The notes beneath the pieces are model-generated. The model saw only the letters and a list, made by a program, of their open reading frames with translations, was not told the origin of the DNA and did not search any database. DNA of 64,000 bases, from NCBI GenBank assembly GCA_026004015.1, contig BPIH01000008.1:1-64000 (forward strand), given 5' to 3'. The position numbers were made by a program, and so were the translations under genes. The stretch is from Chloroflexota bacterium. GTDB lineage: Bacteria; Chloroflexota; Limnocylindria; Limnocylindrales; CSP1-4. Below are positions 365 through 55,472 of this stretch, piece after piece; positions within the stretch are counted from its first letter, which is position 1, and each line of letters opens with the position of its first letter.

Positions 365-3300
365 ATGGTGTCTCGGGGATTGCTGCCGTTCGCGATCGCT
401 GCGCGCTCGCCGGAGCTTCGTGCTCCTGTGGAGCGCGCTCTTCGTTTTCTCGCTCCTCCTTGCAGTACGCGACCTTCGCCGCCCCGCAGCGGGCGCTCGC
501 CGTCCACGACGAAGGGGCTCTTCGAGCTCGACGGGAACGCGGTCGCCAGCTCCGATCGCGGGCGGATGACTGGAGCCAGGTCTACGGCGGGAGCTCGTCG
601 GCCCTCGTGACTCAGTTCATCACTGACCCGACCGACAGCAATACGGACGACACCTTCACCGGCGGAAGCACGAAGGACGACCTCCCGCTCTCAGGCTGGC
701 TCTGGAAGACGGCGAAGGCAACCCCGATCAAGAACGACATCGCCCACGCCTTTGCCGCTCTCTACACGAACGACGGTGGCGACAAGATTGCCTACTTTGG
801 GCTCGACAAGATCGAGGCCGACGGCAACAACTTCGCTGGCTTCTGGTTCTTCCAGGGGCCCGTCGGTCGGACTGGAGCCGGCACCGGGAGCGGCAGCCCA
901 TTCACGGGCAGCCATGTCGTCGGCGACATCCTCGTCCTCGCCAACTACACGAACGGCGGCGCGCGTTGCCGACTTCGACATCTACAAGTGGGTCGGCACC
1001 GGCGGTGATGTGAACGGAACGCTCCAGACGGTCGCAACGGGAGTCGAGTGCGGCACTGCGTCCGGCGACGATGCCTGCGGCATCACGAACGGCGCCGATG
1101 CGGTGGCTCCTTGGCCGTTCGAGGGTCGCGATCGTCCGGCCGGCACGTTCGGACCCGGCACGTTCTTCGAAGCCGGCCTCGAACCTCGACCGCGCTCGGC
1201 CTCTGGGGAGAGCTGCTTTACGACCTTCCTGGCCGAGACGCGCGCCTCCCAGTCCGTCGACGCCGTCGCTGTCCGATTTCGCCCTCGGGAGCTTCGACAC
1301 CTGCGGCTCCGGTGACCATCGTCAAGAACGCCGTCCCAAACGACCCCCAGGACTTCAGCTTCACCCAAAACGTCGATGGCAGCGGGGGCTTCAGCCTCGA
1401 TGACGATGCCGACCCGGCGCTCTCGAACAGCAAGGTCTTCGACCGGGTCAACCCGGGGACGTACACTGTCAGCGAGGACGCCCTCCCCGCTGGCTGGAAG
1501 CTGACCAATATCACGTGTGACGACGCCGACTCGACGGTCGATCTCGCAGAGTCGGACCGCGACGATCCGGGTCGCTGCGACCGAAGACGTCACCTGCACC
1601 TTCACGAACACGAAGCTCGCCAAGCTCATCGTCGAGAAGCAGACGAGCCCCGACGGGGCGCCCGGCTCCTTCTCGTTCTCGCGGTGCCGTCTCCGGCTCC
1701 ATCGGCGACGGCGGCACGATCGCCTCCGGGCTTCCTCGATCCCGGGTGCGTACACCGTCACCGAGGCCGACCCGGCGCCGCCCTTCGACCTCGGCGCCAT
1801 CACCTGCGACGACACGAACAGCAGTGGCGACGTCGACGACCCGCACGGCCACCTTCCGGCTCGAGGCCGGCGAGGTCGTGACCTGCACCTTCACGAACGT
1901 CCAGCGCGGGCACGGTCACGATCATCAAGGACGCCGTCCCCGACGACCCGCAGGACTTCAGCTTCAGCGGCGGGCTCGGCAGCTTCACCCTCGACGACGA
2001 CGGCAGCGAGGCCGGCACGCCGAGCATGATGACCTTCACCAACGTCCGTGCCCGGCTCCTACACCGTGACCGAGGCGCGCCGTGCGCCGGCTGGGACCTC
2101 ACCGGCGTCGACCTGCACCGGCACCCGGCGGCTCCAGCGGCAGCCGGGACGGGGCGTCCGCCGCGATCACCCTCACCCCGGGCGGCTCGGTCACCTGCAC
2201 CTTCACGAACACGAAGCGGGGCACGATCGTCGTCGACAAGGTCAGCCGATCCCTCGAGGTGACCCGGCGACCTTCGCCTTCAGACTCTCCGGTGGGCCCG
2301 TCTCGGTCAGCCAGAGCTTCGGCCTGACGGCGATGCAGGCGACCCCCCTCAACAGTCGGGACCCTCAAGCCGGCACGTACAGCGTCGACCGAGACCGTCC
2401 CCGCCGGCTGGGACCTGACCGGTGCCTCGCTGCGACGACGCGACAGCAACCTCTGGCGGCGACGGCGACCTTCCCGTCGCCCCCGGCGAGACCGTCACCT
2501 GCACCTTCACGAACACGAAGCGGGGCACGATCATCGTCGACAAGGTCACCGATCCCTCCGGTGACCCCAGAGCTTCGCCTTCAGCCTCTCGGGCGGCCCC
2601 GACGCGGTCGAGCCAGGACTTCAGCCTGACCGATGCGGCGACCCCCCACGACAGCGGGGCGCTCAAGCCCGGCACGTACAGCGTCAGCGAGACGGTCCCG
2701 GCGGGCTGGGATCTGACGAGCGCCTCCTGCTCCGACGAGAGCGATCCGCCGAGATCGACCTCGCCCCCGGCGAGACCGTGACCTGCACCTTCACGAACAC
2801 GAAGCGGGGCACGATCATCGTCGACAAGGTCACCGATCCCTCCGGTGACCCCAGAGCTTCGCCTTCAACCTCTCGGGTGGCCCCGACGCGGTCGAGCCAG
2901 GACTTCAGCCTGACCGATGCGGCGACCCCCCACGACAGCTGGCGCGCTCAAGCCCGGCACGTACAGCGTCAGCGAGACGGTCCCGGCGGCTGGGATCTGA
3001 CCGGCGCCTCCTGCTCCGACGAGGGCGACCCGTCGGCCGGCGACGGGACCTTGCATCCCCCAACGGCCGCCGAGAGCGACCCGGCCAGCATCGACCTCGC
3101 CCCCGGCGAGACCGTGACCTGCACCTTCACGAACACGAAGCGGGGCACGATCATCGTCGACAAGGTCACCGATCCCTCCGGTGACCCGCAGAGCTTCGCC
3201 TTCAACCTCTCGGGTGGCCCCGACGCGGTCGAGCCAGGACTTCAGCCTGACCGATGCGGCGACCCCCCACGACAGCGGCGCCCTCAAGCCCGGCACGTAC

Positions 3301-5963: not shown

Positions 5964-7008
5964 ATGTCAACGATTCGCGCTACGCGCCGGCCCTCGGCCG
6001 CCATCCGGCTTGTCGGCTGGCTGTCCGTCGTGACCCTGGTCGCCCTGGCGGCCATCGGGCCCTCCGTCGGCCTCACCCGAGCCGCCTCGGTCGATGGCCG
6101 CTTCATCGACATTCCGCAAGGCACGGGGCAACCCGAGTGCACCGACGAGCTCCTCGGAAGCTACGACTTCGGGTTTCGGGTCGACGGTAAGGACCTCACG
6201 AATGACGGCACCTGGAAGCTCTTTAGCCACGACTTCGGGTCGTTCACGGCCAGCCTCGAGATCGCCGGCCACGCCGGCTCGGACGACGACTCGGTTCCGA
6301 ACTCCATCGACTTCCGAAACGCGAGCCCCGGCGTCTGGGCGATCTTCGTGAAGGCCGGCCAAGACGGTTATCTCTATGAGTACGGTGGCCCTACGGTGGC
6401 CGACACGAATCTCGCTGGCCCGGACGGGAAGAACATCAGCCATCTCGAGATCTGCTACCGAGAAGCGGTCGAGCCGTCCGTCGAGCCCTCGGTCGAGCCC
6501 AGCGTCGAGCCGTCCGTCGAGCCCAGCGTCGAGCCGTCCGTCGAGCCCTCGGTCGAGCCCAGCGTCGAGCCGTCCGACGAGCCCTCGGTCGAGCCCAGCG
6601 TCGAGCCGTCCGTCGAGCCCAGCGTCGAGCCGTCCGTCGAGCCCTCGGTCGAGCCCAGCCGTCGAGCCGTCCGTCGAGCCCTCGGTCGAGCCCAGCGTCG
6701 AGCCGTCCGTCGAGCCCTCGGTCGAGCCCAGCGTCGAGCCGTCCGTCGAGCCCTCGGTCGAGCCCAGCGTCGAGCCGTCCGTCGAGCCCAGCGTCGAGCC
6801 CTCGGTCGAGCCGTCGCCGACTCTGGAACCCACCGGCGAGGTCCTCCCGGCGACCGGGACGCCGCGGGTCACCCCGCCCGCGACGGACACCGCCACCATC
6901 GCTTCGAGGCCGAACCCCGTCGCCTGGCGGATCGCCCTCCTCGCCATCGCCGCGGCCATCGCCTTCCTCCTCGTCCTCACCCCGGCGACTGACCGGCGGC
7001 GGCGCTAG
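5964..7008 (+). CDS. secreted protein with VEPS-repeat stalk and LPATG-type C-terminal anchor, one frameshift
   Basis: ATG 5964 follows AGGAGG (5953-5958) by 5 bases. The N-terminus is a long signal peptide ([19 protein letters not shown]) followed by a globular domain of about 120 residues with no family I recognise. Next comes a low-complexity stalk of Val/Asp-Glu-Pro-Ser units (6468-6815), then [22 protein letters not shown], about 15 residues, a hydrophobic helix ([18 protein letters not shown]) and an RRRR tail. An extra C near 6659-6660 inside the repeats shifts the frame; removing it joins the stalk to the anchor. The C-terminal segment resembles that of the upstream surface protein, so both are probably displayed by the same route. 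The stalk should be extended and acidic. Confidence 0.75.
6468..6815 (+). repeat. 12-bp repeat array encoding VEPS units
   Basis: Twelve-base units GTCGAGCCSNSS (GTCGAGCCGTCC, GTCGAGCCCTCG, GTCGAGCCCAGC) repeat about 28 times with one GACGAGCCC variant. The order of the three variants is itself semi-periodic, suggesting 24- and 36-base higher-order duplications. One unit contains an extra C (6659-6660). Confidence 0.9.
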
Positions 7009-51934: not shown

Positions 51935-52944
51935 CGAACCAGGCCGGGCGCCCGGGGGCGACGCCGGGTGCTGCCGGGTCGGCGGTCGACGCGCCGCACG
52001 CCGAGGACGTCACCGAGGACGTCACCGAGCTCGCCGCCGAGGTTCGGGACCTCGCCCGGGAGCGCAACGCCGTCATCCTCGCCCACCACTACCAGCGCCC
52101 CGAGGTGCAGGACGTCGCCGACTACGTCGGTGATTCCCTCGGGCTCGCGCGCCGGGCGGCGGCCTCCGGGGCGCCGGTCATCGTCTTCTGCGGGGTCCAC
52201 TTCATGGCCGAGACAGCGGCGATCCTTTGTCCTGAGGCGACGGTCATCCTGCCCGACCTGGAGGCCGGCTGCTCCCTCGCCGCCTCGGTCGACGGGGCGG
52301 CGGTCCGGGCCTGGAAGGCCGAGCATCCGGACGCGGTCGTCGTGAGCTACGTGAACACGAGCGCCGAGGTGAAGGCCGAGTCGGACTACTGCTGCACCTC
52401 GAGCAACGCCCGGGCCGTCATCGAGGCGATCCCGCCGGACCGGGAGATCCTCTTCCTCCCCGATCTGTTCCTGGGTCTCTGGCTCGAGCGGGTGACCGGC
52501 CGGCGCCTCCATCTGTGGCCGGGGGAGTGCCACGTTCACGCCGGGATCCGGCCCGAGGATGTCGACCGGGTGACGCGAAGCGAGCCGGACGCTGCCCTCC
52601 TCGTCCATCCCGAGTGCGGCTGCACGAGCCAGGCGCTCGCCTTCGCCAACGAGCGGACCCACGTCCTCTCGACGCAGGGGATGATCGAGTTCGCCCGCCG
52701 CACCGGCGCTCGACGGCTTCACGTCGCGACGGAGGTGGGGATCCTCTACGGGCTCCGGCGGGCGGCCCCCGGGACGGAGTTCGTCCCGATCCGGGACGAT
52801 GCGGTCTGCGGCTACATGAAGCGGATCACGCTACCGAAGGTCCGCGACGCCCTCCGAGCCGGCGGCCCGGTCGTGCGGGTCGCGCCCGATGTCGCCGCCC
52901 GGGCCCGGCGGGCGATCGAGAGGATGGTCGCCATCGGCGGTTGA
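51931..52944 (+). CDS. nadA: quinolinate synthase
   Basis: It condenses iminoaspartate with dihydroxyacetone phosphate on a [4Fe-4S] cluster. The 337-residue protein shows VILAHHYQRPEVQDVADYVGDSLGLAR, FCGVHFMAETA, LPDLEAGCSLA (C114), YVNTSAEVKAESDYCCTSSNA, WPGECHVHAG (C200), HPECGCTSQ, LSTQGMIEF, ATEVGILYGL and AVCGYMKRITLPKV (C293). C114, C200 and C293 are the likely cluster ligands. ATG 51931 overlaps nadC. It ends the niaR-nadB-nadC-nadA operon. Confidence 0.95.
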   Translation: MTNQAGRPGATPGAAGSAVDAPHAEDVTEDVTELAAEVRDLARERNAVILAHHYQRPEVQDVADYVGDSLGLARRAAASGAPVIVFCGVHFMAETAAILCPEATVILPDLEAGCSLAASVDGAAVRAWKAEHPDAVVVSYVNTSAEVKAESDYCCTSSNARAVIEAIPPDREILFLPDLFLGLWLERVTGRRLHLWPGECHVHAGIRPEDVDRVTRSEPDAALLVHPECGCTSQALAFANERTHVLSTQGMIEFARRTGARRLHVATEVGILYGLRRAAPGTEFVPIRDDAVCGYMKRITLPKVRDALRAGGPVVRVAPDVAARARRAIERMVAIGG

Positions 52945-53327
52945 GAGGGCGCCGGGGCGGCGCGGCTGCGCTCCTCGCCCGTGACGCCCCAGCCGGACAC
53001 TTGCCGTCCCGGGCGGTTCCCGGTCCACGCCGTGACGCCTCAACTGGACACTTGCCGTCCCGGGCGGTTGCGCCTGCCGCCCATGACGCCCCAGCTTGAC
53101 AACAGGTCGTCCGGCCGGCGCGACACCGCCAAGTGTCCAGCCACGCCGTCACGAACGGTGGCTGACAGCGCCGTCCTCGCCAAGTGTCCAGCCACGCCGT
53201 CACGGGCCGCGCGGAGGGGCAGAAGGTACGAGGCTCAAGAGCCCCGCGAGGTCTAGCCAGGCGGCCGGTCGCGTGGCAGACTAGCGCTCCCGATCCGAAG
53301 GAACGGCAAGCGAGGCCGAACCACGAC
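52945..53327 (+). other. intergenic region after nadA dominated by a 51-bp repeat array
   Basis: No gene is supported in this 383-base gap. Open frames on both strands here only translate the repeats. The bulk is the array at 52981-53203; the rest precedes the GH15 gene. Confidence 0.6.
52981..53203. repeat. 51-bp-period repeat array with copies in both orientations
   Basis: The motif GTGACGCC-N6-GGACACTTGCCG starts at 52981 and 53032, and a decayed copy (ATGACGCC...TTGACAACAGG) starts at 53083, each exactly 51 bases apart. The first two copies also share the following CCGGGCGGTT-type sequence. Two inverted copies (CGCCAAGTGTCCAGCCACGCC...GTCAC) cover about 53127-53152 and 53178-53203, again 51 bases apart. 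The whole is an inverted array around about 53118 (CCGGCCGG). Confidence 0.85.
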
Positions 53328-55472
53328 ATGGTCGCTCCGACGTCCAACGAACGCCCCACCGCCTCGCCCCCGTCGGCCGAGCCTGCCACCCGCGGCGATG
53401 CCGCCGTGGAGGCGCCCCGTCGGGCGCCCGACGCTGCCCCGCCGGCCCCCCAGCCGGCCACCCCCTTCCGAGCCGCCTCCCGACCCGGGCGCCGACCCCT
53501 CGCCGCGCCCCGACGCGTCGTCGACCGCGGTCGGTCGCCGTTCCCGCCGATCGGCGACTACGGCTTCCTCTCCGACTGCGAGGTCTCCGCCCTCGTCGCG
53601 CCGAGCGGGAACGTCGAGTGGCTCTGCCTCCCCCGGTTCGACTCCCCGAGCGTCTTCGGGGCGATCCTCGACCGCGGCGCGGGCGGCTTCCGCCTCGGCC
53701 CGGCCGATGCTCGGGTCCCGGCTGCCCGCCGTTACATCCCCGGGACCATGGTCCTCGAGACCAGCTGGGGGACCCCGACCGGCTGGATCATCGTCCGGGA
53801 CCTCCTCCTCATCGGCCCCTGGCGGGACGACGGGCGGCACCCGTACCACCGCCGCGCCCCGACCGACTACGACGCCGAACACATCCTCCTCCGGATGGTC
53901 CGCTGCGTGACCGGCCAGGTCCAGCTCGTCTTCGACTGCGAGCCGGTCTTCGACTACGGTCGCCGACCCGGCCGCTGGGAGTTCAGCGGACCCGGGTATC
54001 GGGAGGGCGTCTGCACGGCCGAGGGGAGCGACCTCCGGCTGACCCTGACGAGCGACATCAACTTCGGCTTCGAGGGGCCGAAGGCGATCGGTCGAACGCT
54101 CATGAAGGAGGGTGACGTCCGCTTCGTCGCCCTCGGCTGGGGCGACGTGGAACCGCCCCGAACCGCCGAGGAGGCGCACCGACGCCTCGTCTGGACGGCC
54201 CACCACTGGCAGCACTGGCTCGCCCGGGGCCACTTCCCCGACCACCCCTGGCGGACGTATCTCGAGCGCTCGGCCCTGACCCTCAAGGGCCTGACGTACG
54301 CCCCGACCGGGGCGATCGTTGCCGCGCCCACGACCTCCCTCCCCGAGACCCCCGGCGGCGAGCGGAACTGGGACTATCGGTACAGCTGGATCCGCGATTC
54401 CACCCTCGCCCTCTGGGGCCTCTATCGACTCGGCTTCGACTGGGAGGCGAACGACTACTTCTCCTTCGTCGCCGACGTCGCCGGCGGCGACGCCGACCTC
54501 CAGGTCATGTACGGCGTCGGCGGGGAGCGGGAGCTCGAGGAGGCGACCCTCGACCACCTCCATGGCTACGAGGGCGCTCGACCGGTCCGGATCGGCAACG
54601 CAGCCTACCGCCAGCGCCAGCACGACATCTGGGGCGCGATCCTCGAGTCGTTCTACCTTCACACGACGTCCCGCGACAGCCTCGACGAACGGATCTGGCC
54701 GATCCTCGTCCGGCAGGTCGAAGCCGCCGCCCGCCACTGGCGCGAACCCGACCGCGGGATCTGGGAGGTCCGGGGCGAGCCCCGGCACTTCACCTCGTCG
54801 AAGATCATGTGCTGGGTCGCCCTCGACCGCGGGGCCCGCCTCGCCCGGCTCCGCGACGAACACGACCTCGCCGCCCGCTGGCAGGCGATCGCCGACGAGA
54901 TCCACGCCGACGTCTGTGCGAACGCCGTCGACGAGCGCGGCGTCTTCACCCAGCACTACGACACGACCGCCCTCGACGCCTCGGTCCTCCTTGCCGTCCT
55001 GTTTGATTTCCTGCCGCCGGAGGATCCACGGATCCGGGCGACGGTCTTCGCCATCTGCGAGGAGCTGACCGAGAACGACCTCGTCCTCCGATATCGACCC
55101 GAAACCACCGACGACGGGCTGACCGGGCGGGAGGGGACCTTCACGATCTGCTCGTTCTGGCTCGTCTCCGCCCTCGTCGCCATCGGGGAGCTCGAGCGGG
55201 CGCGCCGCCTCTGCGAGAAGCTCCTCGCCCACGCCAGCCCCCTCGACCTCTACGGCGAGGAGCTCGACCCCCACTCCGGGCGCCATCTCGGGAACTTCCC
55301 GCAGGCCTTCACCCACCTCGCCCTCATCCGGGCGGTCATGGACGTCATCGAGGCGGAGGAGGCGGCGGCCGAGGACGACGGCCCGAGGACGTCGCCCGGA
55401 GGCTCGGGTGCTCCCGGCGCGGGCGGCCGGCCCGAACACGACCCGAACGGGACGGCCGACGCCGGCGGGTGA
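53328..55472 (+). CDS. glycoside hydrolase family 15 protein (glucoamylase/trehalase-like)
   Basis: The protein has 714 residues from ATG 53328, with a disordered Pro/Ala N-terminus of about 70 residues. It then carries the bacterial GH15 N-terminal domain (IGDYGFLSDCEVSALVAPSGNVEWLCLPRFDSPSVF) and the (alpha/alpha)6 barrel (GGERNWDYRYSWIRDSTLALWGLYRLGF; QNDIWG-like QHDIWGAILESFYLH; GIWEVRGEPRHFTSSKIMCWVALDRG with the likely catalytic Glu; GNFPQAFTHLALIRA). This matches the trehalase/glucoamylase-like group common in actinobacteria. No signal peptide, so it acts on cytoplasmic alpha-glucan or trehalose. Confidence 0.9.
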   Translation: MVAPTSNERPTASPPSAEPATRGDAAVEAPRRAPDAAPPAPQPATPFRAASRPGRRPLAAPRRVVDRGRSPFPPIGDYGFLSDCEVSALVAPSGNVEWLCLPRFDSPSVFGAILDRGAGGFRLGPADARVPAARRYIPGTMVLETSWGTPTGWIIVRDLLLIGPWRDDGRHPYHRRAPTDYDAEHILLRMVRCVTGQVQLVFDCEPVFDYGRRPGRWEFSGPGYREGVCTAEGSDLRLTLTSDINFGFEGPKAIGRTLMKEGDVRFVALGWGDVEPPRTAEEAHRRLVWTAHHWQHWLARGHFPDHPWRTYLERSALTLKGLTYAPTGAIVAAPTTSLPETPGGERNWDYRYSWIRDSTLALWGLYRLGFDWEANDYFSFVADVAGGDADLQVMYGVGGERELEEATLDHLHGYEGARPVRIGNAAYRQRQHDIWGAILESFYLHTTSRDSLDERIWPILVRQVEAAARHWREPDRGIWEVRGEPRHFTSSKIMCWVALDRGARLARLRDEHDLAARWQAIADEIHADVCANAVDERGVFTQHYDTTALDASVLLAVLFDFLPPEDPRIRATVFAICEELTENDLVLRYRPETTDDGLTGREGTFTICSFWLVSALVAIGELERARRLCEKLLAHASPLDLYGEELDPHSGRHLGNFPQAFTHLALIRAVMDVIEAEEAAAEDDGPRTSPGGSGAPGAGGRPEHDPNGTADAGG

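What the first reader, a model, noticed from the sequence alone, without database searches (positions are those of the whole stretch)
52981..53203. 51-bp periodic repeat array arranged as an inverted repeat after nadA
Five copies of a 26-38-base element (GTGACG-N8-GGACACTTG core) occur in 223 bases. Three copies are direct (52981, 53032, 53083) and two inverted (about 53128 and 53179). The spacing is exactly 51 bases in both halves, although the sequence between copies differs. The strict spacing with diverged spacers suggests a constrained architecture (protein-binding array, mobile repeat or structured RNA) rather than simple slippage. It is not CRISPR-like: spacers are too similar in phase and copies are inverted.
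Basis: seen in the sequence. Interest (0 to 1): 0.72.

Follow-up and report, generated by a model that had tools for sequence, protein, structure and literature searches.

The report
Probable leftover transposon ends, back-to-back
A 225-base stretch after a NAD-synthesis gene holds five copies of one short DNA site, spaced exactly 51 bases apart and pointing inward from both sides; it most resembles the two ends of a jumping gene with its middle missing, but no intact parent could be found, so this is a plausible relic rather than a proven one.

Summary
The array is real. Four strong copies of a 27-bp site (CGTGACGsCnnnnCyGGACACTTGsCG) lie at 52980-53006 and 53031-53057 (+), and 53127-53153 and 53178-53204 (-). 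A fifth, half-decayed copy (+) lies at 53082-53108. All three like-strand intervals are exactly 51 bp. The 22-bp core is expected 0.01 times per window by chance; four are found. In the right half the sites are 27/27 identical but their spacers only 10/24 (Fisher p = 1.5e-6), so the site was selected, not merely copied. In the left half the spacers are also partly alike (16/24), so duplication contributed there.

The array was found nowhere else: not in the held 1.37 Mb of this genome (about 55% complete), 176 class relatives, a 400-genome phylum sample, 84,980 GTDB species (exact paired core), IMG/VR, plasmids or phages. The nadA-GH15 junction was not found in family relatives, so there is no empty site. 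No target-site duplication stands out.

Best reading: abutted left (3 sites) and right (2 sites) ends of a Mu/Tn7/IS21-type DDE transposon that lost its interior, a non-autonomous or dead relic. IS21 copies in this genome and relatives have similar inward multi-site ends, with a 22-34 bp period. Membership in a named family is not shown.

The parts
52980..53006 (+). site L1 (outermost left), CGTGACGCCCCAGCCGGACACTTGCCG
   Evidence: 36.2 bits
53031..53057 (+). site L2, CGTGACGCCTCAACTGGACACTTGCCG; 24/27 to L1
   Evidence: 39.8 bits
53082..53108 (+). site L3, decayed: first half kept, GGACACTTG half lost
   Evidence: 11.0 bits
53103..53126 (.). short stretch between the left and right site groups; inferred join where the interior would have been lost
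   Evidence: position only, inference
53127..53153 (-). site R2 (inner right), reads CGTGACGGCGTGGCTGGACACTTGGCG on - strand
   Evidence: 39.5 bits
53178..53204 (-). site R1 (outermost right), 27/27 identical to R2
   Evidence: 39.5 bits
52045..52944 (+). upstream neighbour nadA (quinolinate synthase); stop codon 35 bp before L1. Interval given is the part searched, the gene may start a little further upstream
   Evidence: Pfam NadA E = 1.3e-107
53328..55472 (+). downstream neighbour: glycoside hydrolase family 15 with TREH_N domain; probable start codon about 124 bp after R1
   Evidence: Pfam PF00723 E = 1.2e-66

Best explanation
The array is most likely the two multi-site ends of a DDE transposon of the Mu/Tn7/IS21 type (RNase-H-fold 'rve' transposases that bind several inward-facing sites per end), lying almost back to back because the interior with the transposase genes has been lost. 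Three sites (one decayed) form the left end and two form the right end. In life the transposase would bind the 22-27 bp bipartite site (TGACG half and GGACACTTG half, about two helical turns), pair the ends and cut at their tips; the inner sites support assembly. Today the element is either a non-autonomous miniature dependent on a transposase in trans or, more likely given the decayed L3 and single copy, a dead relic. Shown: the sites, their orientation, the exact 51-bp period, and conservation of sites beyond spacers between the halves and within the right half. Inferred: that the binding protein is a transposase, that an interior was lost, and where the element's tips are.
For: Inward-facing site groups on both sides with no recognisable gene between. 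Sites conserved beyond spacers. IS21 elements in the same genome (L034, istA broken, ends with 2+2 inward units containing CTGGACA) and in family relatives (L011, L016, L020, L025, L027, L032) have the same layout of inward repeats at their ends. Published: IS21 ends consist of direct repeats L1/L2 and R1/R2, two being required for integration (PMC10122671); Tn7 has three TnsB sites left and four right, with 22-bp inverted repeats, and spacings up to 75 bp were the criterion used to delimit Tn7-like elements (PMC8649781); VchCAST has three unevenly spaced sites per end on the left and three on the right (PMC13370975). The array sits at a gene junction not found in relatives. Intergenic transposase-less inverted-repeat elements are known in bacteria (PMC11578231, PMC3189936).
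Against: No parent element or second copy found anywhere searched. No convincing target-site duplication; the best, a 6-bp GCGCGG, is of a kind expected by chance in this 73% G+C DNA and sits asymmetrically. The 5 bp outside TGACG on each side are reverse complements, not direct repeats. The period (51) is about twice that of the local IS21 ends (22-34), with no intermediate half-period site. No TniA/TnsB-type (PF09299) gene in the held part of this genome.
Confidence: 0.5

Rival explanations
1. A host regulatory array: a transcription factor binds five asymmetric sites between nadA and the GH15 gene, perhaps by looping, controlling the GH15 gene (start about 124 bp downstream).
For: Intergenic, upstream of a gene on the same strand, site conserved beyond spacers.
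Against: The site array is absent from genomes of relatives that carry GH15 proteins 70-78% identical, and from every other place in the held genome, class and phylum samples. No sigma-70-like promoter found, a weak test in this lineage. Three copies one way and two the other with a degenerate L3 is unusual for operators (own knowledge).
Confidence: 0.2
2. A one-off local rearrangement: a 51-bp tandem duplication plus an inverted duplication in intergenic DNA, without function.
For: Single copy; L1-L2 similarity runs on into the spacer, 16/24.
Against: The right-half motif is 27/27 identical while its spacer is 10/24, and left-right similarity is confined to the motif; neutral duplication would decay evenly.
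Confidence: 0.22
3. A structured RNA or terminator hairpin after nadA.
For: Strong fold, -121.7 kcal/mol, z = -4.3.
Against: The fold is what the inverted copies would give; no Rfam match, no terminator-like site, no homologues with which to test covariation.
Confidence: 0.05
4. Repeat-containing protein gene: 51 bp equals 17 codons and both strands have open frames across the array.
For: ORFs 52981-53256 (+) and 52826-53461 (-) cross the array.
Against: No Pfam match for either; open frames are common at 73% G+C; inverted copies would encode different peptides; differences between L1 and L2 (unit positions 10, 13, 15) show no codon pattern.
Confidence: 0.03

Closest known systems
IS21-family ends (IS5376, IS21; local copies L034, L011, L020, L025)
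   Same: Two or more inward-facing direct repeats of about 20 bp at each end, left and right groups mirrored; the local IS21 L034 units also contain CTGGACA
   Different: No istAB here; period 51 instead of 22-34 bp; no TG tip outside the outermost unit as in L034/L025/L027; rest of the unit sequence differs
Tn7-like (TnsB) and related TniA-type transposon ends
   Same: About 22-bp sites, unequal numbers left and right (3 and 4 in Tn7), wider spacing, outermost site may lie some bases inside the tip
   Different: No tns/tni genes, no target-site duplication; evenly rather than unevenly spaced sites; no PF09299 protein in the held genome part
Bacterial MITEs (MITEPsy2 228 bp, MITEPye1)
   Same: About 225 bp, intergenic, inverted repeats, no transposase gene
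   Different: Single copy, no recognised parent IS, no duplication; the MITEs cited have one inverted repeat per end

Membership tests
IS21 family (ends-only derivative) | two or more inward-facing direct repeats at each end | tested here: met
IS21 family (ends-only derivative) | repeat period of about 23 bp (22-34 in local relatives) | tested here: not met
   51 bp, no half-period site; published 23 bp
IS21 family (ends-only derivative) | istA/istB between the ends | tested here: not met
   no coding room between the ends
IS21 family (ends-only derivative) | short target-site duplication (about 5 bp) next to TG...CA tips | tested here: not met
   no exact duplication of 4 bp or more at any TG/CA pair
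Tn7-like transposon (ends-only derivative) | arrays of roughly 20-22 bp sites, inward, left and right, spaced up to 75 bp | tested here: met
   against criteria
Tn7-like transposon (ends-only derivative) | tnsB/tniA-type transposase gene associated | tested here: not met
   none between the ends and none in the held 55% of the genome
Tn7-like transposon (ends-only derivative) | 5-bp target-site duplication | tested here: inconclusive
   tip position unknown; G+C-rich flanks give chance matches
MITE | ends shared with an autonomous parent that mobilises it | tested here: not met
   no parent in any collection searched
MITE | several copies or presence/absence between strains | tested here: inconclusive
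   single copy in an incomplete genome; no sister strain held
CRISPR array | near-identical direct repeats with unrelated spacers | tested here: not met
   copies inverted between halves; L1/L2 spacers partly alike

The most novel reading that the evidence does not exclude
A miniature element of a so far undescribed Mu/Tn7/IS21-type transposon group whose ends use evenly 51-bp-spaced sites, mobilised in trans, or a new host regulator that works through a mirrored five-site array.
Probability: 0.15. Interest if true: 0.5.

Novelty: new member of a known kind. Interest (0 to 1): 0.3.

Why it matters
If it is an ends-only relic, it documents transposon ends with an unusual, exactly repeated 51-bp site spacing, and gives a sequence tag for finding the autonomous parent in metagenomes of this lineage. 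If it proves to be a one-off rearrangement, it matters little.

Tried and rejected
CRISPR remnant (inverted copies, spacers partly alike). Rfam families (none). Rho-independent terminator or sigma-70 promoter (none). Half-period (25-26 bp) IS21-like sites between the copies (not above background, right half lag 26 about 2 sd). Protein-coding repeat (no Pfam). GTDB exact paired-core scan: three loci with unrelated flanking sequence (Anammoxibacter, two Oscillatoria). IMG/VR scans: 27 and 2 loci with unrelated surrounding sequence. G343/G385 single-site hits with 2 mismatches are one identical lone site in two genomes of one genus, with no array. Single hits in G004, G008 and G070 are also lone sites. 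TniA/TnsB loci of relatives: no comparable array seen in the short flanks held, a weak test.

Full report
Observation. Reading 52500-53800 and repeat searches confirm three direct and two inverted copies, with start-to-start distances of 51, 51 and 51 bp. In a common 51-bp register the site is CGTGACGsCnnnnCyGGACACTTGsCG. A weight matrix from the four good copies gives them 36-40 bits; the next best place in the window scores 13 and the third direct copy 11. The third copy is therefore half-decayed and does not carry the GGACACTTG core. The core with up to three mismatches is expected 0.01 times in such a window and is found four times.

Selection against simple copying. R1 and R2 are identical over 27 bases, while the 24 bases that follow each are 10/24 alike (p = 1.5e-6). 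Left against right, the site is 21/27 and the spacers are 8-10/24 (p = 0.0016 and 0.009). Within the left half, L1 and L2 are 24/27 in the site and 16/24 in the spacer (p = 0.056), so a 51-bp tandem duplication probably helped to build that half. The site is thus the conserved thing and the spacing is kept. This is the signature of a protein-binding array rather than slippage alone, at least while the element was under selection. These p-values treat positions as independent and the 27-base site was chosen after looking at the data, so they are indicative only.

Where else. The site is found nowhere else in the 1.37 Mb held of this genome, an assembly rated about 55% complete, at up to three mismatches. 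It is not found as an array in 100 relatives, 176 other genomes of the class, or a 400-genome sample of the phylum, either as a two-copy 51-bp pattern with three mismatches or as a single site with two (one lone two-mismatch site shared by two genomes of one genus). A scan of 84,980 GTDB species for two exact CTGGACACTTG cores 36-66 bp apart returned three loci with unrelated flanking sequence. IMG/VR scans gave loci with unrelated surrounding sequence. Plasmid and phage searches gave nothing useful. Exact patterns can miss diverged parents, and almost half of this genome is missing, so absence is not strong evidence.

Context. L1 begins 35 bp after the nadA stop codon and R1 ends about 124 bp before the probable start of a GH15-family gene. 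In the family relatives examined nadA is followed by other sequence, and no nadA was found in the upstream flanks of their GH15 genes, as far as those flanks reach. The junction is thus not shared and no empty site is available. Genomes of relatives with close GH15 homologues lack the site, which speaks against a conserved operator for that gene.

Mechanism. Among DNA-binding systems, inward-facing groups of about 20-bp sites on both sides are typical of DDE transposons of the Mu/Tn7/IS21 type. IS21 copies from this very genome and from relatives show it directly: L034 (own genome; istA broken) has two units per end, 25 bp apart, each containing CTG(G/A)ACA or a close variant; L011, L016, L018, L020, L025, L027 and L032 have repeated units at their ends with periods of 22-25 bp (34 in one end), and in some the units 46 bp apart are more alike than neighbours. 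Published work says that IS21 needs two direct repeats per end (PMC10122671), that Tn7 has three sites left and four right, with spacings up to 75 bp used as a search criterion for Tn7-like ends (PMC8649781), and that VchCAST has three on each side (PMC13370975). An element reduced to its two ends would look like this array. The decayed L3 lies next to the point where an interior would have been lost. This step is an inference from anatomy.

What does not fit. The period of 51 is about twice the IS21 period and there is no site at the half period. Tips are uncertain: no TG...CA pair is flanked by an exact duplication, and the 6-bp direct repeats seen (such as GCGCGG) are of the kind expected by chance among the many boundary pairs tested. 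No TniA/TnsB-type gene was seen in the held half of the genome. I therefore do not file it as a member of IS21, Tn7 or any MITE family, and hold the transposon-end reading at about one in two.

Alternatives. Regulation of the GH15 gene (about 0.2), a one-off rearrangement without function (about 0.22), a structured RNA (0.05; the fold z-score of -4.3 is what the inverted copies would give, with no Rfam match and no terminator), and coding sequence (0.03; no Pfam match).

Verdict. A real, non-random array; probably a transposon-end relic; not categorically new; modest interest.

Noticed in passing
L034 1123-3283 (G000:C2, about 194349-196509): A degraded IS21 element in the same genome: istA has no single open frame while istB reads open; each end has two inward units of the type GGTCGAAnnCTG(G/A)ACA.
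   Followed up: partly
window 2477-3032: Two 284-bp tandem copies, 96% alike.
   Followed up: no
window 6468-6815: Long 12/36-bp tandem repeat (about 29 copies of 12 bp), consensus GTCGAGCCCTCC, which would encode a V-E-P-S type repeat in one frame.
   Followed up: no
L122, just downstream of nadA: A relative has a different short tandem repeat (GGCGACGCGCCACGACCCGA) right after its nadA.
   Followed up: no
family relatives, e.g. L102-L110: TniA/TnsB-type (PF09299) transposases occur in 8 of 107 family genomes; their ends were only partly examined.
   Followed up: partly
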